Shown here one piece after another: positions 1,046-64,000 of a stretch of DNA of 64,000 bases. The notes below the pieces were generated by a model, which saw only the letters and a program-made list of their open reading frames with translations, searched no databases and was not told where the DNA came from. Location of the stretch: positions 1,302,001-1,366,000 of the forward strand of contig CP137869.1 in assembly GCA_034406715.1 (NCBI GenBank), written 5' to 3'. This DNA is from Rhodotorula mucilaginosa. Taxonomy: Eukaryota; Basidiomycota; Microbotryomycetes; Sporidiobolales; Sporidiobolaceae. How positions within the stretch are numbered: the first letter of the stretch is position 1; the number at the start of each line of letters is the position of its first letter. A program made the position numbers and the translations under genes.

Positions 1046-2009
1046 CTAGAGAGCAAAACGAGCGATAGCTCTACGGCGCCAATCCTCATGGTGGATGTTG
1101 TAGAACTCGGAGGCGATTCGGCGGCCGATGCGCGGCCCGTGACCGAGTGCGTGGCGGTCAGTGGTGCGCTCTGAGGGCTCATGATGGAGTGGGTATCCGG
1201 TCGGTCTTTCTTCAAGTGATTCACGCTGGAAGTCTGGGTCCAGGTGAGGCCAGTTCTCCGCAGTTTCAAACTGCTGCTCTTGGTTAGCGTGCTCTGCACC
1301 AGCAAAGCTGTGTTCACGTGGGGGTGGAACATCTGTTTCGGAATCAAATTTGTCAGTCACGGTGTGTAGGGTGGCCAGCATCGGCCTGACCGGGCCCTTA
1401 AGTTTCTGACCAACATTCATGTCGACTCGTGGCTGGTGAACCCGGGCAAGTAGGCGAAGAGCCCGCTTGTTGGTGATGCCATTTGCCATCGTCGCTTCCA
1501 GCACGACTGTGTGCAGACGCGGTTGCCACTCCTTGCTTACGTTGAGCTCGGTAGACTCCAAGGTCTTTTGACAGGATCATGTATGGATTTGGCTAGGGTT
1601 TGTGAGCAATCAATCAGCTCAGTTTGACTGTGTTTCTTCTCTCCTTCCGAGGTGCCACGCTCACCAGGTACCAATCCTTGTCCGAGGGGTCAGCAAACAA
1701 GTTGACAAGATACTGAAAACTCTTCCTGGTCTGTAGGAAGCGGGATGCGAGGTCCTCCCTGTACCGGTTGACGTCAGTCTTTTCCACTTGTTCCCGCCAC
1801 TCCTCGGGCCATCTCTGTAGGCGCTCCGTTTGCCGCTCGGTGAGCTTAAAGTTCTGTGCACGCTTGCGCGCAAGACAGGTAATGCCTGAGAACATGGTGG
1901 TGAGCCACTTTTTGTAACCGGATTGATCCCTCTTCTCTGCGAGAGCTGCGAGAGCTTCGTCGGCGATATCCAAATCATGCCAAAATTTGGGTTCAGGCTC
2001 AGTAGTCAT
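1046..2009 (-). CDS. DWYL-family protein, member 1 (unrecognised family)
   Basis: Three exons are modelled: 1665-2009, 1541-1592 and 1046-1332, giving about 227 residues. Exon 1 carries the family core: GYKKWLTTMFSGITCL, then RWPEEWREQV, then SFQYLV and a terminal DWYL. The exon ends exactly after W-Y-L and a GTGAGC donor follows, the same position as in every other copy. Exon 2 starts with the family P-N-P-Y-M-I-L-S-K-D motif. The second intron runs from a GTAAGC donor to a CTGAC branch site and ACAG acceptor. The acidic/Gln/His-rich tail starts HVPPPREHSF. The start MTTEPEPKF was chosen because member 4 begins MTTEPSAKF. I know no function for this family. The core is rich in Trp, Lys and Arg and looks helical, with no signal peptide or membrane segment. 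Confidence 0.65.
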
Positions 2010-2111
2010 TCTCTTGGTAGCTGTGCGCACTTTGAGCAAAGGAGTGTGCGGAACGAGTAAAAGAGAGAGCAATGGGTAGCTGGTCTGTCGAAAATGGTCC
2101 GCTCCGCTGAC

Positions 2112-2155
2112 GCTCGGTTCGCTTCCTCTCGCCCAAGTCCGCGGCTTGTCCGAGC
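2112..2155 (-). promoter_or_regulatory. shared two-part promoter motif, DWYL member 1
   Basis: Read on the gene strand, CGGACAAGCCGCGGACTT is followed 12 nt later by GCGAACCGAGC. The first half is a direct repeat, CGGAC-N6-CGGAC, of the kind bound by Zn2Cys6 factors (family knowledge; the factor here is unknown). The motif lies about 100 nt upstream of the ATG and recurs before the other three family genes. Confidence 0.6.
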
Positions 2156-2362
2156 CAAGGATGATAGCCCAGCCACAGCAGGGGGCGGACAGAAGCTTCC
2201 TGAGCTTCCTCCGCCGGGGGGAACATCACGGGCAAACCCGGATGTCGGTTTGGCTTGTGTAAGGCCCTAGCCTCACGATGAGACGAGATGGAGAGACGGA
2301 GGGGAGGTGGCGCGGCGGAGACGAGTTGACCTCGCGCCGCTTTCACGCGGATCTCTGCTCTT

Positions 2363-2455
2363 GACCTCACGCTACGGCTGACGGTCAGGAGCAGGTGTGT
2401 AGACTCGCTCTTTTATCATAGACCTGACGCTACGGCTGACGGTCAGGAGCAGGTG
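2363..2455. repeat. 35-bp direct repeat, two copies 58 bp apart, each with a small palindrome
   Basis: Copies at 2363-2397 and 2421-2455 differ at one position. Each contains the perfect inverted repeat CTGAC-G-GTCAG. They lie upstream of DWYL member 1, beyond its promoter motif. Confidence 0.8.
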
Positions 2456-2956
2456 CAAAGCATTGTCCTACTTCTTTGGCTGTGGCGGGTGTTGGACGCC
2501 TTCGAGCGTCCTTCCAGCTTGGCGGCGCGGGTGGGTAAACGGAGGCCTGAGCGCAGGCTTGTCAAGCTACTTTCCTCAACTTGCTATACAGACTCCTCCT
2601 GCGGTGGTTTGCTGCATGCTATTTTGCCTTGCATGCTGGGCTGACATTGCTTTGCTCGCCCGCTTCGCCTCGCTCGGACTCGACTTCCTCTTCTAAGTCT
2701 CTTCCTCGCTCCTTTTCTTTTCAACGTGGCTCACACCCTCGTGATCACAGAGTTACACCCCAGATTGTGCACAGCACCCCTTTGGCGGATGTTAGTGGAA
2801 TCTCTCGGTCGACTCATTGTAACTCCCTTGCCTCTTCTTCTTTTTCTCTTTAGCACCTTGCCCTCCTGGCTCATACTCTTGGGGAAATCTCAACTTGAGT
2901 CACCATTTACCAGCTCTAGCTTGTTCTACAAATCACTACAACCCAACCTGAGCGAA
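2456..2956. other. gene-free stretch
   Basis: Between the direct repeat and the 3' flank of DWYL member 2. Pyrimidine-rich on the top strand; open frames are short and without recognisable motifs. Confidence 0.5.
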
Positions 2957-3099
2957 CTATAGTAAGGGGAAGAGATATTAGTGACATTCAAAGAAACAAC
3001 CAAGAAATAACTCAACTCAGCATGCAGAAGTCTGCATGTGATATGGCACCTTCAGCATGCATCTTGTCAACAGGTTGCCACCTCAGGAATACTACTCAC
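2957..3099 (-). other. probable intron in the 3' UTR of DWYL member 2, with a block conserved in member 3
   Basis: On the minus strand a GTGAGTAGT donor (3099-3094) lies 11 nt after the stop codon. A TCACTAAT branch-like site and a pyrimidine-rich CTATAG acceptor end at 2957. The segment 2977-3018 is about 80% identical to 32368-32411, just after the stop of the tandem DWYL gene. There too a TCACTGAC branch site precedes a pyrimidine run and CATAG. This suggests a conserved terminal intron; it could alternatively be coding in a frame I have not resolved. Confidence 0.4.
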
Positions 3100-3110: not shown

Positions 3111-4369
3111 TCAGAGGTTTGGTCGGATTTGTAACCTTCTTGCAGCCGAGTGCCCGTTTCGCATGACTGGCTGTTCAAAGTCGGGCTGTGGAATGTGGGC
3201 AGGTTGCCTGGGTAATGGTGGCCCATACTCAAACTGCTGTTGGTGGTAGGGATGTTGCAGCGGCGGCCCAAAATGCTGTTGCTGCGGGTAACTATTGTAG
3301 GAATTATGCGCCAGAAGCAATGCCCTGTCTTCCTGAGGCTGCTGCGGGACATAGGGATTGCCCGCTTGAGGCATTATTTGGTCGCTGTAGGGAATGCCTG
3401 CCAGAGGCAGTGCCTGCTGCTGTTGGACGGAGGAAGCCCATGCCGGGTGGGTTACAGTCCCAGCAAAGTGCAGCCCGTTGGCGGCAAATGCTGGAGGCTG
3501 GATCCCGCCGGGACCAGGCCATCCTCCTTGAGAGTAACTGCCTGTTAAGGCATGTGGGTCAAAGGCAGGTGCATCGAAATTGAAAATGGGTGGCGACCTG
3601 TTGATTCGCTGGACAGGATCGAACGGTGATTCCATGGGAGGTGCGAGTCCTGCATGCAGATTCCCATGCCGAGCTGGGAATCCATTTGCTGGGCCTTCAA
3701 GTTCCTGGCACTGTTGCGCTGCCGCGCTTGCGGGATTGTCCGCCTCTTCCTGTAGCTACCGCATTGATTGGTCAACCGATCAGATTGCCTCACCAGCCCA
3801 AGCGCTGTGCATATCTGGTTTGGAGTGTGCAGATGTTGAAACCGCAGTTAACTACCACTGTTGTTGGAGACTTACCCTGGGCTTGGCTTTGGCTTTGGCC
3901 CTTTGTACGGAACGCAACTTGCTAGCGTGGGTGGCGTTTCGCCAATGTTCAATGTCCCTTGTAAGGATGTTGTGTGGTTTAGGCTAGAGCACTTGATAGT
4001 CAGCTGCATGTTCAGCTCCTTCCTCCTTAGACCACCACTTGCCAGGTACCAAGATGCGGATTTCAAGTCTGCCATTCTGCCAGCAAGAAACTTGAAGTTT
4101 TCCTTGGTGCGCAGGCGCACATCTTTGTCGACACGGCGTGCCTGTAGTTTGAGCACTTCCTTCGCCCACTCTTGGCAATATCGCTCGAAGGACTTTGCGC
4201 TTCTGGTTGGGAACTCCAACTTTATTGTCGAGAGGCGCGTCTCGGCAATACGCTGAAGCCCTTGGAACATATGGTGTAGCCAAGCTCGGTAGCCCTCCTC
4301 AGACAAGCTCTGAAGTTCTTGATCGTCAATGTTAAATCCTTGCTCAAATGCGCCAGGAAACTGAATCAT
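3111..4369 (-). CDS. DWYL-family protein, member 2, with Gln/Pro-rich tail
   Basis: Exons 4043-4369, 3876-3983 and 3111-3749 give about 357 residues. The core holds GYRAWLHHMFQGLQRI, RYCQEWAKEV, NFKFLAGRM and ASWYL. Exon 1 ends after W-Y-L with a GCAAGT donor, a GC-AG intron, while the other copies use GT at the same place. Exon 2 opens with PKPHNILTRDIEHW and is Lys/Arg-rich. Intron 2 has a GTAAGT donor and a GCTACAG acceptor. Exon 3 encodes a tail rich in Gln, Pro, His and Tyr, for example SSVQQQQALPL and NSYPQQQHFGPP, which looks disordered. The ATG giving MIQFPGAF is the first in frame; the frame is open further upstream but only from non-ATG codons. No function is known. Confidence 0.65.
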
Positions 4370-4535: not shown

Positions 4536-4578
4536 GCACGGTTCGCGTTCGCGCCAAAAGTCCGCGGCTTGTCCGAGC
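4536..4578 (-). promoter_or_regulatory. shared two-part promoter motif, DWYL member 2
   Basis: On the gene strand CGGACAAGCCGCGGACTT is followed 11 nt later by GCGAACCGTGC, about 165 nt upstream of the ATG. The first half is identical to that of members 1 and 3. Confidence 0.6.
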
Positions 4579-6236: not shown

Positions 6237-8496
6237 ATGCACTCGTCGCTCCCGACCAGTGCAGCCGTCTCAGACTCGAACGACACTCTTGTTGTCGGCC
6301 ACGGTCACGAATCTCGAGCGAGTCGAGATGGACAGCCGCGAACGGCGGAAGTCGAGCGGGTTTCAGCTCATGACCCTGCCGCTGGCATCGACCGCATCAT
6401 GGACCGTCGATCGACCAGGGACGGTACCGAAACACCCACGATTGCGGCACTGGACGAGCAAAAGGATGAGCGCGGCGAGCATGACACCGTCCGGGGGGAC
6501 AAGGAGGACTTGCGCGCCGGAGGCGTCGGTATCGGCGAGATCCTCGACGAGGACGGCAAGCTCCGGCCCACGAGCTCGAGACCTCACGATTACGAGACCA
6601 CGATGGGCGGCCACACGCCCCCGACCGGGATCAAGCTCTTTTTCTTGCTGATCGGACTCCTCCTCATCGAGGTCCTGTCCGGTCTCGACAACACCATCGT
6701 CGCGACCAGTACGGCGACCATCGCGAACGATTTTGGCGCCTTGCAAGATGTGGGTTGGTACGGCAGTGCCTTCCTGCTCGCGACCGTCAGCCTCCAACCG
6801 CTCTTTGGACGCGCGTTCGCCTTCTTCCCCCAGAAATGGGTCCTCATTCTCGCCCTCGTCATCTTCATGCTCGGCTGCGTCGTCGCTGCCGTCGCACAGT
6901 CGTCGCCTGTCCTCATCTTTGGGCGCGCAATCCAGGGCGCCGGTTACGCCGGCTTGTTCATCGGGATCTTGCAAATTTGCGCCAACGCCTTGTCGGTTCG
7001 GACGCAGGCGATGGTGACGAGCCTGATGAACGTCTCCTAGTACGTACTATATCGAGCTATACTGCTCTAGGGTTGTCCAGCTTTCAGGAGTTCCCTTCCC
7101 GGCGCGCCCAACTGACGACCCTTTTTCTTCCTTCGCGCTTCTCCAGCGGCTTCGGAACTGTACTCGGCCCCCTCATCGGAGGAGCACTCACATCAAGCCT
7201 TACATGGCGCTGGTGTTTCTGGATTATTTTGCCGCCCTCAGGCGTAGCACTTGTTCTCGTCGCCCTCCTGTGCCACCCGCCGCCGATCCCGCAAACCCTC
7301 TCCGTCAAACAGCGCCTCGCGCACATGGATTGGGCCGGCGCCGTTCTCCTCCTCGGTTCGATGGTCTGCCTCCTCATTGCGCTACAGCAGGGTGGTATCG
7401 TGTGGGCGTGGTCGTCGTCGCGCATGATCGGACTGCTGGTTGGCTTCTTTGCCATCACGGCGGCCTTCTTCGTCCTTCAAGGATTCCTCGGCGAACGGTC
7501 GTCGATTTCGCTGCGGTTGATGCGCGACCGCAGCGTCGCCGCGGTGTGCTTCGTCAACTTTACCTGCGGCGCCAGCTATTATTCGATTTTGTATTTCGTC
7601 GCTATCCACTATCAAGTCGTAAGTATTAAGGAGCAGCCAGGGACAGGAAACGTTTGCGTCCTGACGCGTTTTCGCCTCCCCGCTCCGCTCGCAGGTCCAA
7701 GGGTCGACGCCGGTGCGAGCCGGCGTACAGATGCTCCCTCTCATCTTTTTCAACATGGCGTTCGGCATGCTCTCCGGCTGGAGCGTCTCGCGGTTCGGCG
7801 TTTTCCATCCTGCGATGTGGATCGGCACGAGCATGACCGCCCTCGGCGCCGGATTGCACGCCTCGTTGAATCAGTACTCGGGCGACGGCGAATGGATCGT
7901 GTTTGGGATGATTGTGGGAACCGGTATGGGTGAGTCATCGTCCTTTGCCGATGTCTTTCACCCAACACCGAGAATCGAAAAAAAGATCCTCGCTTCCCCT
8001 CCCGGAGCGCGAGTTCCGAACCCGCGTTAGTTGGAGATTTACTGACGAAGCTGCTTGTTGCCCTACAGGCTCGCTCTACATGATGTCGTTCGTCGCGAGC
8101 CAGATCCTCGTCGAAGACCCGCGGGACAAGTCGCGCGCGGCGTCGCTCGTCTGCTTCTGGCAGATCTGGGGCGCAACGGCGTGGGTCTCGGTCTCGAACT
8201 CGATCTACAGCAACTCGTTCAAGCGCGGGATCTCCCGCATCCCGGGCGTCGACGTCGAGGCCGTGCTCGCTTCGGGCGTCGACCGGTTCCGAGAAGTCGT
8301 CACGCCGGAGCAGCTCGAACCGGTCACGGACGTGGCGGTCTCGAGTCTGTTTGACGTCTTCCTCGCGAGCGCGATGCTCGGAACGGCTGGCTTCATCGGC
8401 GTGTTTGCGATCCGGTGGGTCAACATTGGATCGTCGAAGAAGAACAAGACGAAGAAGAAGGGTGGAAAAGAAGAGGCGGTCGACTCTCTGGCGTAG
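6237..8496 (+). CDS. MFS transporter, DHA2 (14-TM) drug:H+ antiporter type
   Basis: Exons 6237-7039, 7147-7618, 7695-7929 and 8069-8496 give about 645 residues. After a soluble N-terminal part of about 130 residues the first helix carries LSGLDNTIVATSTATIANDF, the motif typical of the DHA2 branch. GRAIQGAGYAGLF and GTVLGPLIGGALT (antiporter motif C) follow. More than a dozen hydrophobic segments are visible, and the C-terminus is Lys-rich (KKNKTKKKGGK). These proteins export small hydrophobic compounds across the plasma or vacuolar membrane in exchange for protons; the substrate cannot be read from sequence. All introns have GT donors and keep the frame. No biosynthetic cluster is adjacent. 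Confidence 0.85.
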
Positions 8497-31603: not shown

Positions 31604-32431
31604 GCGCCTGCTGGCGAAAAAACAAGGGGAGGTTCGTTTCGATGGCGGCTTGTACAGAGAGATCTGTGTAGGGACAGAGAAAGACACTAGATGTGAATTT
31701 GTTGTTTTGTTTAACCTGAGCGTTAGGGTGTGAACGGCGAAGGGGTCGGCGTCCTAGGAAGCGTCGACGGCGGACGCCCATTCAATTAGGATGGAAGGCC
31801 ACTGCGAGCTTGTTACAGACGGGAGGGAGGATTTGCTGCTATCACTGCACAGTTTCTACACTCGAAGCTGAAGTGTGGAGTAGATAGGGGCAAGAGTTCA
31901 GCCTGCCCGACAACGGTTGTCGTAGCGCTGGTCATGGTGAGAAGGCTCTCGCCGACGCCCACCTTTGTAAGCCTTAGCACCTATTTTGACACTACTGCAC
32001 TGCTACACCATGCAATCTGCTCGAATATGCGCTGTTGTGCATAAGGATAGAGACGTGTGGTAAGCCACAACTTGCACATGTGCAATGCGAGCCTCAACTT
32101 TCAAGCTGCGAGAGGGGGGTGTGCTTTCACGATTGATCCGGCAGCAGGAATCCTGCTCAGTCAAGGTAATAGTGCACATAGAGGGACACGAACGCCAATG
32201 CTGAACTTCAAGCTTGAGCAAGGGATGTAGGGAGTGGCAAAGCCACAAGAGACCCCGCAAAGTCCTTTCACCACTTCTTCCCCGAGTCCGGGCAAGCTGT
32301 GTCTTCAGGTGGCGACTACACTTTACATCCAGGACACCTACTCCACACATCTATGAGAAAAAGAAGTGTCAGTGACACTCAAAGAAGCACACCGAGAAAA
32401 TAACTCAACTCGGAAATTGGAGCTGGCTTCT
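31604..32431. other. 3' flank of the MADS gene and of the tandem DWYL gene
   Basis: AT-richer convergent intergenic DNA. It includes the conserved block 32368-32411 shared with the 3' flank of DWYL member 2, followed on the minus strand by a pyrimidine run and CATAG. No supported gene. Confidence 0.5.
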
Positions 32432-34254
32432 TCAGTGCATGTTGCCATGTCCGGCACCACCGTCCGACCTGAAGAATGGGTCCAGCCATGCAGGCCAAGT
32501 TTCTGCATCTGCATGCAGATCTGAATGGGCTGCGGTCTCAGGTGGCGACAAAGCTGCTGGGGGGGTGTCGAGACGAAGCAACCGAGCATCAAGCTGAGGT
32601 GACCACAAGTTCTGAATCTGCTCAGGGCTGTTGTAACCATGAGGCCGAGACAACGTCTGCTCTAAGACAGTGACGTCTGGTGCATGAGCCGGTGCCTCAT
32701 GGTTACCAAGATCCGGCACCTGAGGGCACAATGTCTGCTGCCAACGTGGGTCATCTCTAGGCACCTGGAGATGCTCCTGGGGAGATTCATTCAGAACACC
32801 AGGTAAAACAGTGCCAGGCATACTATTTTGGAAGATAGGGGGCGGGGGGCTGGTTCGCTCTTCGGGCTGGTACTGATTTCTAGTGTCAAGCTCGGATTGC
32901 TCGTTTTCACTGGTTTCATTATCCGGAGTGTTCTGTCCAGATCTCAGTCAGCCATACTTGCAGTGCAGTGTCAAGGAGAGTCTGTGCAGGCCAGGGGACC
33001 GGAGTGCCTTGCGGACTCACCGTGACCGCATGTCCAGCTTTCCTAAGCCTGGTTTCTCGGGCGGACTCCCGCCTCTTGGATCTCCCTTGCTCAAGATCTT
33101 GATTGAGGATCTGCTTCATACTAGGCTAGAACCGTTCCTGGTCAGCTAAGTGCTTTGCTGGTATCTCTTTGCGCCGTAAACTCACTAGGTACCAAATTCC
33201 GTCTCTCAAAAGGCGTGCAAGATAGAGAAAACTACCCTCGGTGCGCAGCCGCAGCCTTGCAGAGTCTTCTGACCTTATCAATGTCCTCATATCGACTAGT
33301 GATTCGGAGTCTTTGCGCCACTTTTTGATTTTCTCCTTGCGCCGATCGAAAATGTTGGTTGTCCGAGAGGTATGTACAGTACCTTGAGAAGCAGCTATGG
33401 CTCTGTTGCACTGGTTTGCAAGCGTGGCCATGCCTGCAATCATGGCTTTGATCCAAGCTCTGTAAGCTGCTGGCTCCTTACTCGCAAGATCGTCATCTGA
33501 TATTTTCGATTCCTGGTTCAGTCGTCGCAAGTCAGCCCTCTCTGCTGCTTCTGTGGCAGAGTCAGGCTGAGTTGGTCTTTGTATTTCCCTGCGGGTTTTG
33601 TTGCTCTTGTATGTGAATTGTCTTGCTCTTGGAGTGTGCTGTCCTGACCGCCGAGCTGTTGGAGGGGCGCTGTTGTCCGCAGGAAGATGGTTTGCTTTCC
33701 CCTCAAGCCTTAGGCGTGCGTCACGCTGCTGGTTCCACTGCTTTCGTTTGGATCGGAGGTCCTCAATGTCATAGTCCAAGATGGTCTGTGGGTCAGGCTG
33801 GCGAGTCCTCATCAGCCACTTGACTTTCATCTTGATGTTTCCAGACAAGGCCAGTGCTCACTAGGTACCAATCCTTGGAGCTTTGCAGCACCTTGGCAAG
33901 ATACGCAAAGTTGCTCTTGGCGCGAAGAAAACTTCTGTTCCTGTCCGGGTACCGTTCGGGGGACACGATCTTCACTTGTGGTTCCCACTCCGTGCACCAC
34001 TTGTCGAAGCGAGCTTTTCGGCTCGCGGTCAAAGCTGCATAGCGCTTTTGTACCAGACCGGCCAGGCCCGCAAACATGACCCTGAGCCACGCTTTGTAGT
34101 CTTTGTCGCTCCGGCTGGTGAGGGCGTCGTCGGGCTCGTTCAATTTCTCATTGAACTCGTCGAGTACAGCTGTCTCCGCCGACAGTACCGGCGAGTTGAG
34201 TAGATTCGGCGCGGAACCGGTTACCGCTCGTCGAGAGCGGCTCGCGCGAGGCAT
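32432..34254 (-). CDS. DWYL-family protein, member 3, with two tandem DWYL domains
   Basis: Exons 33862-34254, 33186-33797, 33021-33125 and 32432-32932 join in frame to about 536 residues. Domain A (DYKAWLRVMFAGLAGL, KWCTEWEPQV, NFAYLAKVLQ, KDWYL) ends at a phase-0 GTGAGC intron. The next exon begins PDPQTILDYDIEDL and reads straight through a basic linker into domain B (AYRAWIKAMIAGMATL, KWRKDSESLV, SFLYLARLLR, GIWYL). Domain B ends at its own phase-0 GTGAGT intron, followed by PSMKQILNQDLEQ. So a whole exon-intron module has been duplicated inside one gene. The final exon is Pro/Gln/His-rich (ERTSPPPPIFQ). No known domain or function is recognised. Confidence 0.7.
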
Positions 34255-34317: not shown

Positions 34318-34361
34318 GCTCGGTTCGCGTCCACAGGAGAAAGTCCGCGGCTTGTCCGAGC
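34318..34361 (-). promoter_or_regulatory. shared two-part promoter motif, DWYL member 3
   Basis: Gene-strand CGGACAAGCCGCGGACTT then, 12 nt on, GCGAACCGAGC, only about 64 nt upstream of the ATG. Only one motif precedes this two-domain gene and none lies before domain B, which supports a single transcript. Confidence 0.6.
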
Positions 34362-35514
34362 GAAGAGGCTGTGCGCGCCCGAGACTCCTAAGTTGTAACC
34401 CGGAGATCACCAGGAGATCTTGACCACGTTCCGCTGGGCTTGGCTTGGCAGCTTTGAAGCGCGCGAACGGAGACTCCTGCGCAGTCGAGTCTTATCGATC
34501 TGGTTTCCACCGTGGTTCGCCACGAATACTTGCGGCTGATTCGCTCAGTTGCTCTGCCTTGCCCATAAGGCGCATCCCTCGCACGCGCCGCAATGCTGCC
34601 CGCTCTACGACGTCCGCCGCCGTCGAGTCTGGCTCGTTTCTAGTTGAATTTTGCGTTCGGGTGCTTAGCCTCAGCGCCCGTTGATCGGACTGGCACCACA
34701 ATTAACTGCACAGGTGCCTACAGCGTAGGACAGAGAGTATAAATCTCAGCAGCAGAGGAAAGCGTCAAGCGGAATCTGAAGCTGCGAAGGCCGTCTCGGC
34801 GCTGGAAGAGGATGAGCGGGAATCCTTGTTCACCAGGTTACAGAGAGGCGGGTGAACACAGCTGGTCAGGGGTACAGTTGTAGTTCCGGTTTGTTCAGAT
34901 CAAATTGCTGAGCGGAAACGGTGTGAGGCACACCAGCATGACGGTGTCTCGGAAAGCGAGGGCCTGCATGTCCGTCGCGAGTCGATGATGCAGCCTCTCC
35001 GGCGCGGTTCTTCCTAATCGCAGCAGATAGCGAGTGTAACGTGTCGAACGGAGAGCACAGTCGGTCGAGATGCCGTTGTGATACCTCCGAGCGAGAGTGA
35101 CGGCCCGGCGCGGGTGAAGACGTCGCGCACGAAAGGGAGCTTGTCCGATTGGTGTGGGGACGCGCGTGCGCGTGCGCGCAAGCAATCGCGTCGTACCAAG
35201 CACCTGCCTGAGGTCACATATGAAGGCAGAAAGCCGACTCCCGGGAGTGCACGCGATGCGCCGGTTTTTCGTGTTTCGCGCGGAAGCGAACTTTTCTCAT
35301 CACAAAGTCGATGTTTGTCGCCGGCTCGACTGCTCTGCTCGCATAGTAACGCTGAGCTCGAGATCGCAGCAGATAAAGCAGCGTGAAACTGACCGCCATC
35401 TGCCGCGCCGAGCTTCTCCCGTCTCGAAAACGCTGCCGCACGGCCTCCTCTCGCCGCCCCGCCATTTTCCGACAACAGACCGGCCTCTGCGCATAGACGC
35501 ACCAAGAGTCGAGC
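34362..35514. other. divergent intergenic region before BRF1
   Basis: Separates the tandem DWYL gene from BRF1. No supported exon on either strand; short open frames only. Confidence 0.5.
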
Positions 35515-38359: not shown

Positions 38360-41300
38360 TCAGTCATCATCCTCTTCGAGCGGGCCGATTATCGAGTTGA
38401 TGGGAGGGAAATGAGGTCCGGACGAGTTGACCTTGGCCTGACGCTGCGCTCGCAAAGTAGGGTCCCCGCGCTCGAGGCGGCGCTTGTCGGCCAGGCGGAG
38501 GTGGCGCACCAAGTCCTCCTCCTTGACCGGCTTGGTGAGGATGAACGAGGCACCGGATTCGAGGTACTGCTCCTGATCGGACTGCAGCGCGTTGGCAGTG
38601 ACGCCGACGACGAGATCGTCTCGGCCAAGGGAACGCAGCTTGGCGACGACTTGGACTCCGGAGCAGACCGGCATCTGGTTGTCGAGGAAGACGACGTCGT
38701 AATGCTGGAACGCGTCGATGCCGGCGGTCGGGTCCATGCCGACCTTCTTGACCTTTTTGACGATGGTCCCGTCCCCGCGCTCGGCAGCGTCGACATCGCG
38801 ATGGCCATACGAGCCATACGAGACACCTTGCGCCGGCTCGACTTCCTCGGACACAACTTCGAGCCGGACAGCTGGTACGTTGGTCGCACCAGGAGGCGGC
38901 GGCCGCAGGATCAGGTCGAGGGCGATCTTGCCGTTCTCGGCGGTTTCGACCTCGCAGCCCAGCCGCAGCATCATGCGGCTCATCAAGCGACGCGTGAGCA
39001 TGTCGTCATCGACGACAAGCACCTTGAGTGGCGGGCCCTCGATCCCGAGCTTGTTGGACGGTGCAGCGGCTTTGCCGGCCGGCGCAGTTTGCGGCTTCGG
39101 GGTTGTCAACGGGACCTGAGACGCCGAGGCGCTCGACGCCGCGACTAGAGGCGCGTGAGACGCGGCCGAGGATTTCAGGATCGGCGAAGGCGAGACAACC
39201 GGTATGGAAGAGGAGAACAGCGGCACCGGCTGCACATCGGGCGCGAGGGTGACGGCGCTCGGCGCTGACCGAGACGACATCTGGGACCGGACTTCGGGTC
39301 GTTCCGGCAGGAGGCCAAAGGAACGGTGCGTCTCGGGAGAAGGAGTTGACGACGATTCACCGGTCGCGGAGGGCGTTTGGGGACCTGCGGGCGAGCCGGG
39401 GGGCGAACCCATGCCGGGAGTGGTCGAGACGGACAGTCCACGCTGACGAGCTGCGTCGTCGATGCTGTCGCGCGTGATCGAGCTGGGTTGGAGTCGCAAC
39501 GAGCTGACGAAGCGGTAGTCGGAGGCGGCAGACGAGGCGACCCCGGGCGACACGACCGAGACACGATTCGGCCGCTTGGGCGGACCAGTGGCGTCGCTCG
39601 GGAGGTCGGCAGTGGTACTGATCGGGTACGCGAGCTCGACCCAGAGCGTCGAACCCTCGCCGACTTTGGATCGAACGCCGAGTCGTCCGCCCATGAGCAT
39701 GACGATCTGGCGAACGAGGGAGAGTCCGAGGCCGGTGCCCTTCCCGCCCTGCTCGCGACCGACCGCCGTCTGTACGTACGGCGAGAAGAGGCGGTTCTCG
39801 GCCATGTCGCTCGGTCGGATGCCGACACCGGTATCAGACACCTCGAACCGGACAACAAGCATCCGTTTCGTCGCGTCCGAGTTCTTGAGCTCGTGCTCTT
39901 GCAGCTTGTTCGGCGTGAGTGACGCGTGCATTTCGCCCTTCTCCGAGAGGATGCCCGTCTCGCCAGACTTCTCGGCAAAGTCGCTCGTGGTAGGGAGAGT
40001 CGGTGCGGGCGATCCCATCACGGGGTCTTCGCCCGGGATCGGGTAAATGAGCGTCGTCTTGAGGCCGATGGTGCCGCCGGGCGGAGTAAACTTGCAAGCG
40101 TTGCTCGCGAGGTTGCCGATGATCTGCCGCAAGCGGACCTCGTCGCCGATGACGATCCCGTCTCCTTCTCGAATGTCGGCGGGGTCCTCGTCCGGGTACG
40201 CCGCCCGGACGGCCACCTCGTCGACGCGTTTGTCGAACGAGGGATTGAGCGTGAGTCCGCGAGCGGCCGCGTCGAGACGGAGCGGGATCGCAATCGATTG
40301 CATGACCTTGTGGAGCGAGAAGGGGCGCTGGACCGAAGAAAAGCCGCCGCGTTCCATGCGCGAAAAGTCGAGCACGTCGTTCAGGACCTGGCTCATGAGC
40401 TGGAGTGACGACTCGAGCGCGTCGTATTCGACGCCGTGTTCCGAGTTCTGATTAAACACCTCGAGGCCCTTCAGGTTCTGGACGGCCAGGAGCGCCGTGT
40501 TGAGCGGTACTCGGACCTCGTGGAAAATGTCTGACGGCGAGCAATCGTCAGCCAGTCGAAGAGATCGAACGACCGACGGGAACTCACAGGACGAGAAGCG
40601 GCGCTTGGCGTCGAGCTGCTTGCGCTCGTTGATCTGAGCACGCTGCTTGGCTCGGTACGACACCTTGAGCTCTGCCCGCATCGTGTACACTCGACGGTCG
40701 TTCATCTCGCGCAGGTAGTGCAAGAAGATGATGAAGCCGAGGAAGATGATGACTGTGGCGCGCGGGACAGGATCAGCAAGACGTTCGCCACGCACACGCA
40801 AAGAATGACGGCGAGAAGCACGCACCGATGATCAAGTTTCGTACGTAGCGCGGTCGGTCGTCGACGACGGTGGCGCCCATGAGAGCGATCCAACTCAGGG
40901 CGAACACGACCGTGTAGATGCGCTTCTGCCCGAGCGCAAACAGCGCGACGGTCGGCATCGCCGCCGCGTAAAACAGAGTGGCCTGGAAATCCTTGCGTCC
41001 GCAGTCGGGCGTCGCGGTGTAAAAGCCACAAGAGTGCATGTCGATCGGGTTCGCGGCGGCAAAGATCCACACGCAGGCAAAGACGTAGAGTTGCCAGACG
41101 AGGGTCCAGCGCCGGGGGACGTCGAACGCCGCCATCGGGATCATGGGGACGGTCAACGCTGGCTGGAGGGCGTACAGCTGGACCTTGTTCCAGGTCGAGA
41201 GCGGGCGCGGGAGAAGACCGAGAAGGAGGGCCTGTTGGCGAGGGGCGAGAGTTCGGGGATCAGCAACTTTCGAGCGCGCCGAAGCGGCGGGAGAGGCACG

Positions 41301-46486: not shown

Positions 46487-49400
46487 CTACTCGCGCTGGT
46501 GGACCGTAGTCTTGGGAGCTGCGAGGTTGTTGACATAGTCTTCGACCCACCGCTCGCGATCCTCGGGGACGTGGTCGAACTCGAGGTAGCGCTTGTCGTT
46601 CTGTCGAGAGCGCGATCAAGAGCCAGAGTCAGCAGGCGCGCTCAGGCAACGGGAGAATCAAGTCGATCTAGGACACACCCTGAGCACGGCATGAATCGCC
46701 TTGAGGTCAATCTGCTCCGCCATTTCCCTCGCATCCGGTTCCTCGTCCTCCGAGTCTTCCCTCACCCCTTCCTCTCCGATCAATTTCCCCTTCTCCCTCT
46801 TCTCCATCTTCTTCATCCGTCCCCAATGCTCGAGCACCGAGTTCTCCTTCAACATCTGCGTAAAGTCCTCCCTCGCTTGTCGAGTTCGCCGCGCGAGCCA
46901 GCCATCATAGAGCGCCTCGAGCTGAGTGAAGTCGGATCCGACGAGGCGAGTCACGTGCGGATCGGACGAGATGGCGGGGAGGACGGCATCGAACGGGGTG
47001 GTGAGGCTCGAGGCGTGCGCTGCAAACAGGGACTCGACGTCGCCGACGCGGGAGCGGTACAATTTCTGCTGGTGGGCGTCGAAGAGGCGGCGCTTGTCGG
47101 ATGGGTGCAAGGACGGCGCGTCGAAGCGAGGGTCGGCGGCAAGGGTGGCCCCCACTTCGTCAAAGCGGGCCTGCAGACAGGAACAAGCGGTATGCGTCAG
47201 TCAGAAAGATCTCACAGGGGCGCGTATGTCGAGGTGGCGCTCGCTGGGGCAGGAAAGACCTCCTCGACAAGAGCCACGAGAGAGAGAGACGCAAGACTGA
47301 CATTATGATCCCGCACCGCATCGACGAGCAACTGGGCAAACTCCCTCTCGGCCTCGTCCTTGCCCAGATGGCCGCGCGCGCGCTCCGCACTCCTGGCATT
47401 CCGCATCTTTTCCAACCGGACTTTTTCCTCCCGTTCGCGCAACGAGGCAGCCGCTCGGGCGGCCTTGTCCTCCTTTGATGGCGCTTGGGCGGGCTTTGCA
47501 GAAGAAGTGGAAGAGGAGGTCGATGCAACGGGGTGGGTGCGGGAAGAGTGAGGACCCGAAGAAGAAGCGAGCGAGGCGAGGTGCTTTTCGAAGAGTTGTT
47601 CGCGGAGCGAGGACGAGTTGACGGCGGCGTAGCGTGGATCGGCTGCATGTCGCTTCTTGACCTGTACGCGGCGACGCATCGCAGCGAGGGTGGTAGTGAT
47701 CAGCAACACGTCCGAGCAAGGGCAAGCAAACAAAAGCCCAAACGAGGGAGACACAGCTGGATGGACGCACCTCTGCCCACTTGTCCCCACTCTTGATCTG
47801 CCCATCCAGTCGCAGCATCTCCCCAAACTCCCTCTCGGCCCTCTCGGCCTCGGCGCGTTTCCGTTCCCCCAGTTCGCGCAACCACTTCTTGAACTCTTTC
47901 TCGCGCTCGCCTTCCGTCTTGCCAAACTCGCGGAACCGCGCGTCTTTCGCGTGTTGCCGCTTAAAGTCGCTAAAGTGGGTGCGGGTCGAAGTGACGGTGG
48001 TGGACAAGAGTTGGCGATAGGCCGTCAGGGGCTGGTGAGGGAGCAACGAACGGCACGATCTCTCACCGGGCATCAGTAACTCTGCGCAGGTTTACCCCGA
48101 AACCCGGGTAGGTATGCGAAGCGATGTAAGGGGCCCGACTCACGTCGACCTTGATCCCACTCTCGGCCGCTCGCCGTTTCGCCGTGCGCTGCTCGCGGAT
48201 CTTGTCCTTGCAGAACTGATCAAACAGATCCCTTCGTTCCTTCTGGCCCTTGACGGCTGCCCGGGGGTTGGGGGAGAGAACAATCAGAGGGCCGAATTTT
48301 AATGGTGGGGGGCACTTCCCCGCCCCAAGAAAAGAGGAGAGGAAGAGGAGAGAGAGAGGGACGCACCGTGGTACCGCGGGTCGGTGACAAACTTGGGCAA
48401 CTCGGTCTCGAACGGTGCCATCGGGTTGATCTCTTTCTCACTCAGCAAGACCTAGCGGGAGGAGGGCAAAAAAAACAACAACCCGGGGTTCAGGATCATT
48501 CACCTTTTGTGTCCGCGAACGAGAGAACGAGAGAGAAAAGGGAGAAAGAACGCTCACGGTGAAGAGCGCGGCTGCCTCGACCTGATCGACTTCCATTCGC
48601 TGAGCAAGTCCCCCCGCCACCTGTTGTTGTTGCTGCTGCTGCTGTTGCTGTTCCGGCTGGGCGTTCGCATTCGGCGCCCCCGGCGCGTCGGCTTCGGCAG
48701 CCGCAGCTTCGGCTTCGGCTTCGCGGGCCATCTCGTCGGCGATTTGGCGCTGCCAATCCTCGTCGGCGAGGTCCTCGAGCGAACTGACCACTTTTGGCTT
48801 CTTTTGCTTCTTCTTCTTCTTTTGATTCTTCGTTTCAGACTTGTCGTCGGTGTCGCCGTCCGGGTTTTGAGGTGGCGTTTGATCCGCCTGCTCTGGCTCC
48901 TGCTGCTTTTGTTTCGAGGAGAGCGAAGGAGGAGGAGAAGTTTGGTTGGGGTCGCCACGACCACCGGTGGTCACGTTGTTGCCGCCGCCGCTTGCGTCGG
49001 TCGACGGCGCCGCCTCTTCTGACGACGACAGTTTCGGTTTCTTGGCTGGAGGAGGACCGCCCGCCGCCGCCGCCGACGCAGCCGCGACTGGTCGTTCCGG
49101 GATAGAGGTGTCGCCCCCCTCTGTCTCGACTTCAATCTCGATTTCGAGGTGACCGCGCTCCTGCCCATCGTCCTCCTCCTCCTCCTCCTCCTCTTCTTCT
49201 TCTTCTTCTCCTTCACCGCGGTTCCTTCCAGCGCCGCCCTCCTCGTCGTCCTCCGCCTTTCGTTTCTTTCTTGTGCCTTCGGAAGAAAAGGTCTCCTGCT
49301 GCGCCTCTTCTGTCACCTTCTTCTCCTGCTCCTCCTCCTTGGCCGCCGCCGCCTGTTCCGCTTCCTCTCGCTCCTTTTGTTCGAGTTGCTCGACGAGGTG

Positions 49401-49889
49401 TTTGACCTCTTCGGGGACAGTCCACACGGATTGTTTCGTCTCCGAGTCGTTGTAAAAGACGTTGCCCTTGTTGGTGACGACGCGGATCCAGTTTGTCTCG
49501 CCGAGTCGAGTCTTGAGTTTCGGTTTCTCCTTCTTTTCTTTCTTCTTGGCGGGAGCTGGGGCTTGGGGTGTGTAGTGTAGAGCGGGGAGTTGAGCCGGTG
49601 CAGGAGGTGCGGCGGCGGCGGCTATGGCGAATCCGGGAGGCGGGGGCGGAGGCGGCAAGGGAGCGGCGGGTCTGACATAGGTCGATACGTTGGTGATTGG
49701 GTTGAACCAGTACGGCGCTCCGTTCGGGGCTGGCGGGCGAGTTACACTGGTCAGTCAGTTGCTCCCGCTATAGCGCAGGGTGAGACGTTTACCCTTGTGT
49801 TGAGTCCACGGGGGAGGGACGGGTGCGAGGAAGGGGACGGCGCCGGCGAGGGGGAAGCCAGGCGGAGGCGGAGGCGCTGGTCCCGACAT
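46487..49889 (-). CDS. WW-FF domain splicing/elongation factor, Dre4/TCERG1-like
   Basis: Exons 49793-49889, 48558-49729, 48367-48451, 48144-48256, 47771-48031, 47302-47661, 46679-47170 and 46487-46600 give about 897 residues. A first WW domain spans PPWTQHKAPNGAPYWFNP, and a second lies in NWIRVVTNKGNVFYND. Then comes a long Glu-rich/poly-Gln region. Four to five FF domains follow (for example LLSEKEINPMAPFETELPKF; YRQLLSTTVTSTRTHFSDF; FAQLLVDAVRDHN). Such proteins tie RNA polymerase II elongation to the spliceosome. The opening W-T-x-H-K-A-P-N-G is typical of fission-yeast Dre4. Its start is only 184 bp from the divergent neighbour. Confidence 0.85.
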
Positions 49890-54718: not shown

Positions 54719-56800
54719 ATGTTTGTGAGTGGTGACTACGTCGAGTCTTACCGCGCTGCTGCACCTGCGCCCGCCGGTCCCACGTCGCGCGCTGCGCCGA
54801 GCGATGCGAAAGCGCCTCCTCACGGGTCCCACCTCGCGTCCTCGTCCGACTCGCCCGGCTGCGTACGGTCACCCGCCGAGGGGAAGAGAAGCGTGCTCTC
54901 CCAAGATGCCGAACGATGCCCTCGCCACCACACGCTGCGGCGGAAGCGAGGCACCAGCGCGTGTCTCGACCCTCACCCTCTCCCGCCCTCGACCATCGCC
55001 CTCACCCCGCCCCGTTGTCCATCCCAGTCAGGCCATTGCTGAGCCACAAAGAGAGTATGGCTGACTCTCAAGCTTCTCCCCCTCGACAGGAAGCCAAACT
55101 CGAACAAGCCGAACTCCTCAAAAAGGTCAGTCTCCCCGACCTGCACCTCTGAAGTGGAACTTTGTACTGACGCGATCATCCCCTCGGCAGGTCCTTGACG
55201 GTACGCACACTCGCGAGCGCACATTCCTTTGGAGCCGATGGATTCGGTCACTAACGCTCGACCAAACCAGCCGTCAAGGAACTCGTCACCGATGCCAACT
55301 TTGACTGCTCCGACGAGGGAATCGTGCGTCCCCCGTCCAGCCCCGTCTTGCACATGCTCGGGGTTTGTTTCGCTCCGAGGGTACTGACTGGCGCCCGCCG
55401 TCGACGAACGCACAGAAACTGCAAGCGATGGACAACTCGCACGTCGCGCTCGTCTCGCTCAACCTCGCAAAGTCGGGCTTTACCGAGTACCGCTGCGACC
55501 GCGACCTGTCCCTGGGCATGTCGCTCGCGTCTCTGCAAAAGATTGTCAAGTGCGCCGGCAACAACGACATGGTGACCCTCCGCGCCGACGACTCTCTCGA
55601 CGTCCTCGCCCTCCTCTTCGAAGCCAAGCGCGCCGACCGCGTCGGCGAATACGAGATGAAGTTGATGGACATTGACGCGGACCACCTCGGGATCCCCGAC
55701 ACGGTCTACGACGCCGAGATCAGTTTGTCGTCGGCCGAGTTTGCGCGCATCATCCGCGACTTGAAAGAGTTGGGCGAGAGTGTCAAGATCGAGGTGTCGA
55801 AGGAAGGGGTGCGGTTCTCGGCGGATGGGGACATTGGGTCGGCGAGCGTCACGCTGAAACCCACGGACAAGAGGGGGCAGCAGGACGACGAAGACTCGGA
55901 TGCCTCTGATGATGAGGAGGGTTCGGACGACGAGGAGGAGGAGCAGGAAGAGGAGGAAGAAGAGGAGGAGGAGGAGGAGGAGGCCGAGCCCAAGGACGAA
56001 GACGAGGATGTGGGTTCATTTCTTTCGGGCGGGTCGCCTCGAGCAGGAAGACCCATCTTTTCTGACTCGGGATCTTTCTCGCGCAGGTCGAGATTGAGGA
56101 CGTCAAGCCCGAGGTCAACGGCTCTGGCGACGAGAACGCCGAGGAGGAGGAAGAGGGCGTCTCGGCCGGCGGCGGCAAGAAGCGCAAGGCTCGCGTCGTT
56201 GATTCGGACGACGAGGACGCCGACGCCGACGCTGCTACCGCCAAGAAGGAGGAGAGCACGAGCCCGAAAAAGAAGGTCAAGACCGAGAAGAAGCCCGTCA
56301 TCAAGAAGGAGGCGTCAAAGGCCCCCTCCAAGTCCGCCAAGGGCAAGGGCAAGGCTGCCGTCAAGAAGGAGAAGAAGTCCTCTTCTTCTTCGAAGGGCTC
56401 GAAGAAGACTGCGGCGGCGTCGGGGAAGAAGGGTGGCAAGAAGGCGGACGGCGAGAAGGAGGACGAGGGCGTCAAGATCAACTTGCAGCAGGTGCGCGCA
56501 CTCGCCGCTCGCTCCAGAGCAACAGGTACTGACCTGTTGACTGCACAACACAGGCCGTCGCGTTGACGTTCTCGATCAAGTACCTGTCCAACTTTGCCAA
56601 GTCGACGCCGCTCGCCGAGCGGGTCCGGCTGCACATGTCGAACGAGGTTCCGCTCCTCGTCGAGTACGCGTTCGACCAAGGGCACATTCGGTACTATCTC
56701 GCACCGAAAATCGCTGTGAGTCCTAGGTCTCCCTACGGTCAGGTCGGGTACTGGAACTTGGAGGCGCTGATCGCTCGTCGGCCCCCACCAGGATGAGTGA
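54719..56800 (+). CDS. POL30: PCNA sliding clamp with a large internal insertion
   Basis: Eight exons: 54719-54724, 55090-55125, 55191-55200, 55271-55323, 55416-56009, 56087-56491, 56554-56715, 56792-56800. The first exon is just ATG-TTT; splicing gives [15 protein letters not shown], the canonical PCNA start. Conserved parts include [49 protein letters not shown] and the end [10 protein letters not shown]. The clamp tethers DNA polymerases and repair proteins. At about 424 residues it is far longer than the usual 260. Roughly 170 extra residues, first Glu/Asp-rich then Lys/Ser-rich with NLS-like KKRK, sit in the loop of domain 2 after [12 protein letters not shown] (about residues 189-359). 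An alternative start at 55058 would give a non-canonical N-terminus. Confidence 0.9.
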
Positions 56801-61347: not shown

Positions 61348-61388
61348 CTCGCCGGAGAGGTCTCCAGCTCGTCCACCCCGTTTTAACT

Positions 61389-62389
61389 ATGTCCGCAGGC
61401 CAGAAGTCGACCGGAGTTTGTCTCGTCTGCGGCAAAACGTCCATTCTGCGCTGTTCCGCCTGCGCTCAAAAGTCCAAGATCGATCTCTACTTTTGCTCGG
61501 CCGAACATCAGAAACTCGTACGTCACCGGAGGAAGGGCCTCTTTCCGCTCGCCGAAACGGGCTCAGACTCGAGACTGACACCCCCGGTGGTCGACCACAG
61601 ATCTGGCCTTTCCACCGCCTCGTCTGTGGAGACCGCTCGCACCCTTTCAAGTTGCCGCCTTTCTCCAAAGAAGAAGCCAAGGTCACGTTCGCGCGGACTG
61701 TCGACTTGCCAGAAAGCGCCCAAGATGCCGGGCATCAGATCTACCTTCAGCGACTCATGAAAATCGACCAATACAGCCGTGACGAGCTCAAGGTGCGGCG
61801 TGTCTGCAGAGTCGTGCTCAAACCAGAAAAGAGTCCCGAGCCCTGTCAGCAGTGGGGAATTGACCGGCGCTTATTGTATCGCCAGGATCGCATCGACAGC
61901 CTCATCGGGGTCGAAACGCCCATGCTGGATCACCGTTACCCGACCCGGAGCCTCAAAGGCGCTGTCTTGGCTCTTCGCGGGATCCGCCTGCTCAACTCTT
62001 CGTGGCATTCAGACGTCCCCGCCAAGTCAGCGAGCCTGGGTTTCCTTGAGACCTTTTATGCGTTTTACAACCAACTGACCGCAGCCGGACACGATGTGGC
62101 AGACGACTCGCGCTGGTATTCCGAGTACTGCCACCGCGTCTCGGTCCAGCTCGCGCTCATGCACTTGGTCACCTCGGCGACGAAAGAGCACGGCGGTGGC
62201 GACCGCGATCACCAAAAGGTCGATGACAAGCTTGTCGAGGCGAGGGAGGCCAACATGGTCGCCATGCGTCACTTCTTGGAGAAGATGGTGAACGACCCGC
62301 GTTTCGGCGCCTTCGCACAGTCGGGCATTCGCGCAGCCGACAAGACGCTCGAGATGCTCAGGCAACTTTATGGCAGGAAAGTGGCGTGA
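61389..62389 (+). CDS. MYND zinc-finger protein, paralogue 4
   Basis: Exons 61389-61517, 61601-61792 and 61886-62389 give about 274 residues. The finger reads VCLVCGKTSILRCSAC, then YFCSAEHQKL-IWPFHRLVCG. The same two phase-0 intron positions are used as in the other three copies. The C-terminal half is helical and charged (EANMVAMRHFLEKMVND) with no recognised domain. It looks complete and is more diverged than the tandem pair. A function in transcription or protein assembly is only the general MYND expectation. Confidence 0.75.
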
Positions 62390-62890
62390 CATGCTTGCAC
62401 GTCTTCACGGGGTTTCCGACAATGAACAGCTCGTTCAGCTCGCCTGGGAGGATTCCTAAGCCGCCTTCATCTTACCTCCCTTTCGAACTCGCTTTCTGTT
62501 GCAGTGTCTGTACAAAGGACTCTCAAGAACCGTCTACTTCAAGTCTGGAACCTCACGGCGAACGTGTCGCCTTTCGAGGCTCGCCACCCTTTTTTCTGCC
62601 CGACCTCGCTCTCTCTTGCGGAGCGTACGACACATTATGACCTGGTCCTTTGTAGGCATGTGGAGCTTGAAATTTCAGAGTGCGGCGCTTGCAGCTTTAC
62701 TGATTGTCCAGACAAAGGCTCTCGGATTCGGAAGCAGAGTATTTAGAGCGGTAAGAAAGGCTGCGGCGGCGATGGACGGATGAGAGAGTCACAGAACTTG
62801 CAGAACATTTGCAAGATAGTGTGTAACTCGATATGCCTGTACTGCACATGTCGCAGAATCCGGCGTGCGCCGTAACGATGACGTGCTCAC
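62390..62890. other. gene-free stretch
   Basis: 3' flank of MYND paralogue 4 and distal upstream region of DWYL member 4; nothing supported. Confidence 0.5.
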
Positions 62891-62928
62891 GCCCGGACAA
62901 ACCGCGGACTTTCCAAAGCGAACCGAGC
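62891..62928 (+). promoter_or_regulatory. shared two-part promoter motif, DWYL member 4
   Basis: CGGACAAACCGCGGACTT (one base different from the other three) then, 6 nt on, GCGAACCGAGC; about 130 nt upstream of the ATG. The motif is on the + strand, matching the gene's orientation. Confidence 0.6.
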
Positions 62929-63060
62929 GCGAGGGGTAGCTCTGCACGATCGCGCGTTCTTCTGTCTCTTCCCACCCTTTACCGCAATAGCTCCCGCAAA
63001 GCGCTCACGCCTTAACCTCCCAGAGCCCTCCCTTTGCGCCGAGCCAACACCCCGACAAAG

Positions 63061-64000
63061 ATGACGACCGAGCCTAGTGCCAAATTTCAACAAGGATTGG
63101 TCATCTCTGGCGATGTTCTCAAGCATATGAGTCCAGAGTCCTACAAAGGTTGGCTCAGAGTCATGCTTGGGGGCCTTGCCTGTCTTGTGCACAAGCGCTG
63201 CGCGAATCCAGGTTTGTCAAAGCGTCAAATGGCTCAAGCTGAAAAATGGTGTGAAGAATGGCATGCGGCAGTGGACAAGCTTGCCATCAGACATTCGAGG
63301 AAACAAGGTCCTAGCCGTCTGCGCACCAAGAGAAACTTCATATATCTTGCCGGCTTACTATCAGGCTCTGAGGATTGGTATCTGGTAATTACTAACCACC
63401 GAAAGAAGGTGCAAAACAATTAGCTGATGCGGAGAAAGTGCTTTTAGCCTACAGCACATCGCATTCTCAGAGATGACGTTCAAGCGGAGAGAGAGCGTTC
63501 AAAAGAGCGTAGCACCTGTTCCAACAGTCGCATCAGCGAGTGGAGGGCGGCCGCCAGAGCTAAGCAGGCTCCTGTAAGTTGGCAGTGAAGCTGGTGTTCA
63601 ATGCATAGAAAGGACCGGTGCACTGTGACAGATAGTACTGGTGCTGATGATCCTATGTGCAAGCTGACCAAGGAGTCCTGTCCCTACAGAAAGATCCCAA
63701 AAAGCAAGACCGCGTCCACCAGCAACACCATGATGCAGAAGAGCACCTACCCTATGGTGGGCCAACACACGGTTTTTTGGCTGAGAATGACGGGCATGGG
63801 ACGCTGCATGCAGAAGCTCCGTCCCAGCCGCCACACTGGGAATCAGCGTATCAACCTGCCACACGTACCAACACGACGCAACTTCAAGTTTTTAAGCCGC
63901 AGCCAAGCACTGTTGCACATGCCATGTGTGACAAATCTTCTGAAGGAGGGTTTGGCAGCAACGTGTACGGGCCGGAAATCCCTTGGGCATCTGAGGGAGT
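63061..64000 (+). CDS. DWYL-family protein, member 4 (3' end outside window)
   Basis: Exons 63061-63384, 63448-63573 and 63691 onward, still open at the window edge. The core has SYKGWLRVMLGGLACL, KWCEEWHAAV, NFIYLAGLLSGSEDWYL. The exon ends after W-Y-L with a GTAATT donor. Exon 2 opens PTAHRILRDDVQAER, and a GTAAGT intron follows. The next exon is Gln/His/Pro-rich (HQQHHDAEEHLPYGG; SQPPHWESAYQP), like the tails of the other members. The start MTTEPSAKF matches member 1. An upstream in-frame ATG (MRRANTP) exists, but homology starts at MTTEP. Confidence 0.65.

What the first reader, a model, noticed from the sequence alone, without database searches (positions are those of the whole stretch)
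1046..64000. Unrecognised 'DWYL' family: five domain copies in four genes, with a fixed intron in every copy
At 1046-2009, 3111-4369, 32432-34254 (two copies) and 63061 onward I read the same core of about 90 residues. It runs Y-[KR]-x-W-[LI]-x2-M-x-x-G, then [KR]-[WY]-x3-[WS]-x2-x-V, then F-x-[YF]-L, and ends [DS]-x-W-Y-L. In each copy a phase-0 intron of 59-72 nt follows W-Y-L directly, and the next exon starts P-x4-I-L-x2-D. Tails are Gln/Pro/His-rich and diverged. The fixed exon boundary across diverged sequences argues for an expanding, real gene family, not chance frames. I cannot name it. A regulatory, recognition or selfish-gene role are all open.
Basis: partly seen in the sequence, partly recalled or inferred. 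Interest (0 to 1): 0.88.

Follow-up and report, generated by a model that had tools for sequence, protein, structure and literature searches.

The report
Orphan yeast gene family, shared promoter
A red yeast carries an undescribed family of fast-changing genes, all cut by an intron at the same spot and preceded by the same DNA signal; the proteins look like regulatory proteins, but what they do is unknown.

Summary
The window has five copies of a core of about 110 residues in four genes, each followed directly by a phase-0 intron (72, 59, 64, 60, 63 nt). The genome adds a sixth such copy on another contig, five divergent copies in three genes on the window's contig, and one broken copy: 11 readable cores in 8 genes. 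Left-out profile scores are 69-107 bits; shuffles reach 15.9. No significant Pfam, NCBIfam or PDB relative was found; AlphaFold2 gives a confident helical bundle without significant PDB match. Of 12 database relatives one is named, Rhodotorula.

The main new result is a shared promoter. All eight genes carry CGGACAARCCGCGGA (one a variant) 104-210 bp before the ATG, same orientation. Six add GCGAAYCG 24-33 bp on; the exact pair occurs five times in the genome, always at this family. Among five genes the block is 77-86% identical where exon 1 is 47-58%. Two of three allele comparisons suggest that the core changes faster than its flanks. Best reading: a co-regulated, lineage-restricted family of regulator-like proteins (helical core, basic segment, Gln/Pro tail). 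Function is inferred, not shown.

The parts
2115..2152 (-). promoter block of gene A (CGGACAAGCCGCGGA + GCGAACCG)
1665..2009 (-). gene A exon 1, core domain ending WYL
1593..1664 (-). gene A intron 1, 72 nt, phase 0
1398..1592 (-). gene A exon 2 (PNPYMILSKD...), read straight to the first stop; the true tail is unresolved
4539..4575 (-). promoter block of gene B
4043..4369 (-). gene B exon 1, core domain
3984..4042 (-). gene B intron 1, 59 nt, GC-AG, phase 0
3876..3983 (-). gene B exon 2, P-x4-IL-x2-D and basic segment
3111..3749 (-). gene B exon 3, Gln/Pro-rich tail
2980..2997 (+). short element downstream of gene B; its only other exact genome match is downstream of gene C/D
34321..34358 (-). 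promoter block of gene C/D
33862..34254 (-). gene C/D exon 1, first core (C)
33798..33861 (-). gene C/D intron 1, 64 nt, phase 0
33186..33797 (-). gene C/D exon 2: P-x4-IL-x2-D, linker, second core (D)
33126..33185 (-). gene C/D intron 2, 60 nt, phase 0, after the second WYL
33021..33125 (-). gene C/D exon 3, basic segment
32432..32932 (-). gene C/D exon 4, Pro-rich tail
32371..32388 (+). short element downstream of gene C/D, partner of 2980-2997
62894..62925 (+). promoter block of gene E
63061..63384 (+). gene E exon 1, core domain
63385..63447 (+). gene E intron 1, 63 nt, phase 0
63448..63573 (+). gene E exon 2, P-x4-IL-x2-D and basic segment
63690..64000 (+). gene E exon 3, Gln/Pro-rich tail (continues 310 nt past the window)

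Best explanation
A lineage-restricted family of regulator-like proteins, apparently of Rhodotorula. SHOWN by sequence: eight genes share (i) a core of about 110 residues, modelled as a helical bundle, (ii) an intron exactly at its end, (iii) a post-intron segment that starts with a P-x4-IL-x2-D-like motif and is strongly basic in the five genes modelled, and (iv) a promoter word 104-210 bp before the start codon. Four of the five modelled genes also have a long tail rich in Gln and Pro. Three genes carry the core twice, the second core joined in frame behind the post-intron segment of the first (C/D modelled; G and H read by eye). INFERRED: the shared promoter makes the copies respond together to one signal; the core is a protein-protein (di- or oligomerisation) module, the basic segment contacts nucleic acid or drives nuclear import, and the tail recruits the transcription machinery, so the proteins act like transcription factors or co-regulators, with a quickly changing core surface. 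Whether they act on their own shared element is open.
For: Family and intron. Architecture: the 45 residues after the last WYL have pI 9.7-10.5 and 6-11 Lys/Arg in 5 of 5 models; tails of 156-249 residues with 40-48% Gln/Pro/His/Ser/Gly in B, C/D, E and F. Fold: AlphaFold2 of the E core, pLDDT 84.5, pTM 0.78, five helices, no strand; a type II core is modelled with a matching run of helices. Promoter: the word is 104-210 bp before the ATG in 8 of 8 genes, same orientation, with the second box in 6 of 8; the block is 77-86% identical against 47-58% for exon 1 in the ten pairs of A, B, C, E, F. The exact pair has 5 genome hits, 5 of 5 at family genes, 0 in the reversed control. Chance for 8 of 8 under independence is 8e-28, an overstatement since the genes are related.
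Against: No known DNA-binding domain: none in Pfam, and the core has no significant fold match. Gln/Pro-rich tails also occur in RNA-granule, signalling and other proteins. Gene A lacks a resolved tail, and tails of G, H and I were not modelled. The 15-bp word alone is not family-specific: of the 56 sites examined (of 64), 48 have no family gene; two named neighbours are a pantoate ligase and a protein mannosyltransferase. H and I lack the second box. Local gene conversion could also keep promoter blocks alike. Copies D and E score at or below zero for codon bias. No expression or localisation data.
Confidence: 0.4

Rival explanations
1. A recognition or arms-race family (allorecognition, incompatibility, or defence against mobile elements or mycoviruses): the helical core is the variable recognition part, and the basic and disordered parts give the response.
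For: The core seems to change faster than its flanks: E against P0004, 17 of 108 core positions differ but 3 of 82 positions of translated upstream and intron DNA (Fisher p 0.008); F against P0013, 12 of 106 (a 3-residue length change not counted) against 4 of 146 downstream (p 0.008); F against P0014, 6 of 106 against 2 of 146 (p 0.07). Paralogues differ at 55-66% of core residues, relatives were found only narrowly, and one copy is decayed.
Against: Protein-level counts on three pairs without DNA of the relatives, so no dN/dS; no multiple-test correction; in the F pairs the yardstick includes coding exons, and exon 2 changes too (3 and 2 of 28). Gene conversion or relaxed constraint would look alike. 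By my reading of the alignment P0004 is nearer the family consensus than E, which fits drift in E. The mating receptor STE3 lies on another contig.
Confidence: 0.25
2. A cytoplasmic scaffold or RNA-binding family, not transcriptional: the helical bundle binds a partner, the basic segment binds RNA, the tail drives condensates.
For: The same architecture fits; the top Foldseek hit is a peptide-binding helical bundle (FAT domain), but at E 1.1, not significant.
Against: No RNA-binding domain in Pfam; F has a nuclear-import-like run RKKKHARRRKEKR (sequence; the reading is mine).
Confidence: 0.15
3. Genes carried or spread by a mobile element (selfish or domesticated).
For: Seven of the eight genes lie on one contig in two clusters; the 2-kb blocks that hold the window's genes are lower in G+C (0.526-0.549, apart from block 34001-36000 at 0.600) than the rest.
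Against: DNA similarity among A, B, C/D, E, F is confined to the promoter block (8 of 16 blastn matches), short coding patches (7) and one element downstream of B and C/D; no shared ends. The 10 longest of 83 long ORFs in the window hold no transposase: four have ordinary domains and six no Pfam family. G/H and I/J share downstream DNA, which looks like segmental duplication.
Confidence: 0.1
4. A decaying family without present function, kept only by duplication.
For: One broken copy (J), an unresolved tail in A, weak codon bias in D and E.
Against: Open frames, splice signals and the promoter word are kept in 8 genes although nucleotide similarity between paralogues is nearly gone; the cluster of the E frame stands for 22 contigs (P0005).
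Confidence: 0.1

Closest known systems
WYL domain (bacterial regulators; name and description recalled)
   Same: only the letters W-Y-L
   Different: not among the Pfam hits; the core here is modelled as all-helical, whereas the WYL domain is recalled as a beta-rich fold
Fungal transcription factors with Gln/Pro-rich tails, such as WOPR-type regulators (recalled)
   Same: N-terminal domain, basic stretch, long Gln/Pro-rich tail
   Different: no significant sequence match to a Pfam or solved DNA-binding domain and no significant fold match
Focal adhesion targeting (FAT) domain and other up-down helical bundles
   Different: not significant; many unrelated bundles score alike
HEPN toxin domains (HEPN-MNT pairs)
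   Different: the R-x4-6-H motif (recalled) is found in 1 of the 6 cores A-F, and no His is invariant
Hypothetical protein B0A53_03458 of Rhodotorula sp. CCFEE 5036 (P0008)
   Same: by eye near-identical to gene G of this genome; its gene model also splices directly after the core
   Different: a model without described function; the acceptor chosen there drops five residues compared with mine

Membership tests
WYL domain proteins | match to the WYL profile | tested here: not met
   not among Pfam hits at E up to 10 for 5 proteins and 15 alignment members
WYL domain proteins | beta-rich fold (recalled) | tested here: not met
   AlphaFold2 model has five helices and no strand
Known transcription factor families | recognisable DNA-binding domain | tested here: not met
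   no significant Pfam, NCBIfam or PDB sequence match
Known transcription factor families | basic segment plus Gln/Pro-rich tail | tested here: met
   basic segment in 5 of 5 models, tail in 4 of 5
Known transcription factor families | binds DNA and changes transcription | not testable with these tools
   needs experiment
HEPN toxins | conserved R-x4-6-H active site (recalled) | tested here: not met
   1 of the 6 cores A-F has the word; type II cores not tested
HEPN toxins | HEPN fold | tested here: inconclusive
FAT-like helical bundles | significant fold match | tested here: inconclusive
Mobile-element genes | shared element ends among copies | tested here: not met
   blastn among 9 loci shows no common ends for A, B, C/D, E, F
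Mobile-element genes | transposase or integrase nearby | tested here: inconclusive
   10 of 83 long window ORFs scanned with Pfam, none is a transposase

The most novel reading that the evidence does not exclude
A new domain family with no known relative that serves as a fast-diversifying recognition or regulatory module in Rhodotorula, wired by a family-specific two-box promoter that is under stronger constraint than the proteins themselves, and duplicated module by module through the intron that always marks the domain edge.
Probability: 0.3. Interest if true: 0.7.

Novelty: new variant of a known kind. Interest (0 to 1): 0.5.

Why it matters
Lineage-restricted gene families are common but usually silent about function. 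Here the conserved promoter gives a handle: the protein that reads it, and the condition in which it acts, would show when and why the whole family is used. The fixed intron at the domain edge offers a clear case of module duplication, and the quick change of the core can be tested for selection with existing strain genomes.
Full report
WHAT IS THERE. Genes A, B and C/D are on the minus strand, E on the plus strand. My gene models are: B, 357 residues, exons 4043-4369, 3876-3983, 3111-3749; C/D, 536 residues, exons 33862-34254, 33186-33797, 33021-33125, 32432-32932; E, 356 residues, exons 63061-63384, 63448-63573 and 63690 to 310 nt past the window end; A, exon 1 1665-2009 and an unresolved rest. 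All introns in B, C/D and E are phase 0.

THE FIXED INTRON. In each of the five copies the intron starts at the first base after W-Y-L; lengths are 72, 59, 64, 60 and 63 nt. Four donors are GT and that of B is GC (GCAAGT). Each has a CTGA[CTG] word starting 18-25 nt before its end, and each acceptor is followed by P-x4-I-L-x2-D. Copy F has a 54-nt intron in the same place. The five type II cores also have a GT donor directly after the core; their acceptors and post-intron motifs, P-x4-[ILF][LI]-x2-[DN], I read by eye from the DNA printed. One relative in a public annotation, P0008 (Rhodotorula sp. CCFEE 5036, B0A53_03458), is also spliced directly after the core; that annotation is ab initio with protein alignments (PMC7118180, main text read), so it is not RNA proof.

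THE FAMILY IS LARGER. The window lies at G000:C6:1302001-1366000 of a 20.35-Mb, 19-contig assembly. A search with the E core finds the window copies and F at C3:1444187-1444507 (E 6e-14). F is a full gene of 432 residues in my model. Reading downstream of the shared promoter word (below) revealed three more genes on C6: I near 462 kb, H near 480 kb and G near 557 kb. Searches with G1 and I found the second cores of G and H and a broken copy J near 507 kb. Total: 11 readable cores in 8 genes, plus J. Profiles built from ten cores score the eleventh at 69-107 bits in 11 of 11 tests; the best of 2200 shuffled sequences in any test is 15.9. The tree puts A, B, C, E, F together with D next to them, apart from G1, G2, H1, H2, but no branch is well supported.

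ARCHITECTURE OF THE PROTEINS. The 45 residues after the last WYL have pI 9.7-10.5 and 6-11 Lys/Arg in five of five models. A tail of 156-249 residues follows in B, C/D, E and F, 40-48% Gln/Pro/His/Ser/Gly. This is what Gln/Pro-rich activation or condensate-forming tails look like (general knowledge), which is why I favour a regulator-like role. Three genes (C/D, G, H) have two cores, the second joined through the post-intron segment of the first, so in the C/D model each repeat unit is a phase-0 module bounded by the same intron; G and H were read by eye.

THE PROMOTER. A word first seen upstream of A, B, C/D and E is present before all eight genes, on the coding strand, at -104 to -210 from the ATG; six of eight have GCGAA[CT]CG 24-33 bp further on, H and I do not. 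For the ten pairs of A, B, C, E and F the block of about 50 bp is 77-86% identical, whereas exon 1 is 47-58% identical in nucleotides and 34-45% in residues. In a blastn among loci, 8 of the 16 matches between A, B, C/D, E and F fall in this block, 7 in coding sequence and 1 downstream of B and C/D. Genome-wide, 64 sites fit TCCGCGGYKTGTCCG and none fits the reversed pattern. The exact 15-mer has 60 copies where base composition predicts 0.12; with one mismatch there are 111 against 2 in the reversed control. Beyond the 15 bp the 28 distinct sites compared are not alike, although a few of 53 distinct contexts share a GGTGCG-like continuation. I examined 56 of the 64 sites: 8 belong to this family and 48 do not; two named neighbours of others are a pantoate ligase and a protein mannosyltransferase. 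The word alone is therefore probably a general promoter element of this yeast. The pair of boxes is the family's own: 5 exact hits in the genome, at A, B, C/D, E and G, 0 in the control; F carries a variant of the first box. Under independence the chance that 8 of 8 genes have the word is 8e-28, but the genes are related, so the stronger argument is that the block outlasted the coding sequence; local gene conversion is a possible alternative.

SPEED OF CHANGE. Protein databases gave 14 relatives in three searches, two of which are the window's own; only one bears an organism name. P0004 is an allele or close orthologue of E that happens to be read through the upstream region and into the intron. 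It differs at 17 of 108 core positions but at 3 of 82 positions of the translated non-coding flanks (Fisher p 0.008). F differs from P0013 at 12 of 106 core positions, a 3-residue length change not counted, against 4 of 146 downstream (p 0.008), and from P0014 at 6 of 106 against 2 of 146 (p 0.07). In all three the first intron is unchanged over the stretch read (11, 18 and 18 codons); exon 2 of F also changes, at 3 and 2 of 28 positions. This suggests diversifying selection on the core, but without DNA of the relatives it cannot be told from gene conversion or relaxed constraint, and three tests were made without correction.

RESULTS AGAINST. Codon scores of D and E are at or just below zero, those of A, B and C above it; the model was trained on seven long ORFs, not all confirmed genes. 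A has no resolved tail. The 15-bp word is shared with many unrelated places.

WHAT IT IS NOT. Not WYL-domain proteins despite the letters. Not on the contig of the STE3 mating receptor. Not evidently a mobile element: the type I loci share no ends, and Pfam on the 10 longest window ORFs found ordinary domains in four and none in six. G and H, and I and J, share DNA downstream, which points to segmental duplication.

ORGANISM. G000 is unnamed. Near-identity of gene G to Rhodotorula sp. CCFEE 5036 and a similar G+C (60.58% there; window blocks 0.526-0.639) point to Rhodotorula, probably the R. mucilaginosa group (my guess); the species was not tested.

VERDICT. The most useful addition is the shared promoter. 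Function remains inferred: a co-regulated, regulator-like family (0.4), with a recognition or arms-race family as the main rival (0.25).

Noticed in passing
G000, 64 sites, e.g. window 2138-2152, 4561-4575, 34344-34358, 62894-62908: A sharp 15-bp word CGGACAAGCCGCGGA with 60 exact copies in 20.35 Mb (0.12 expected), mostly without flank similarity: probably a general promoter element of this yeast whose binding protein is unknown.
   Followed up: partly
L068 (G000:C12:76400-79000): Six promoter words at an exact spacing of 2462 bp; one unit contains the start of a pantoate-beta-alanine ligase frame (PF02569, E 2e-9), so a tandem amplification of that gene is likely.
   Followed up: partly
G000:C4:517375-526773 (L029-L031): Three promoter words spaced exactly 4692 bp, identical over the flanks printed: another tandem array, content not identified.
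   Followed up: no
G000:C2:1321348-1321787 (L018, L019): Two copies of the word in inverted orientation 425 bp apart with similar flanks on both sides, like the ends of a small inverted-repeat element.
   Followed up: no
G000:C6:507170-507498 (L061): Decayed copy J of gene I: split between frames, with a stop in one matched piece. No exact promoter word within this stretch of C6; a one-mismatch word lies 1.8 kb away in the opposite orientation.
   Followed up: partly
L058 and L059: Genes G and H share DNA downstream (83% over 312 bp and 76% over 808 bp), a segmental duplication with an unidentified neighbour.
   Followed up: no
window 3984-4042: GC-AG intron in gene B at the position where the other copies have a GT donor.
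   Followed up: partly
window 38360-40831 (-), 55305-56540 (+), 6485-7933 (+), 48438-49754 (-): Ordinary neighbours by Pfam: histidine kinase with response regulator, PCNA, major facilitator transporter, WW-domain protein.
   Followed up: no
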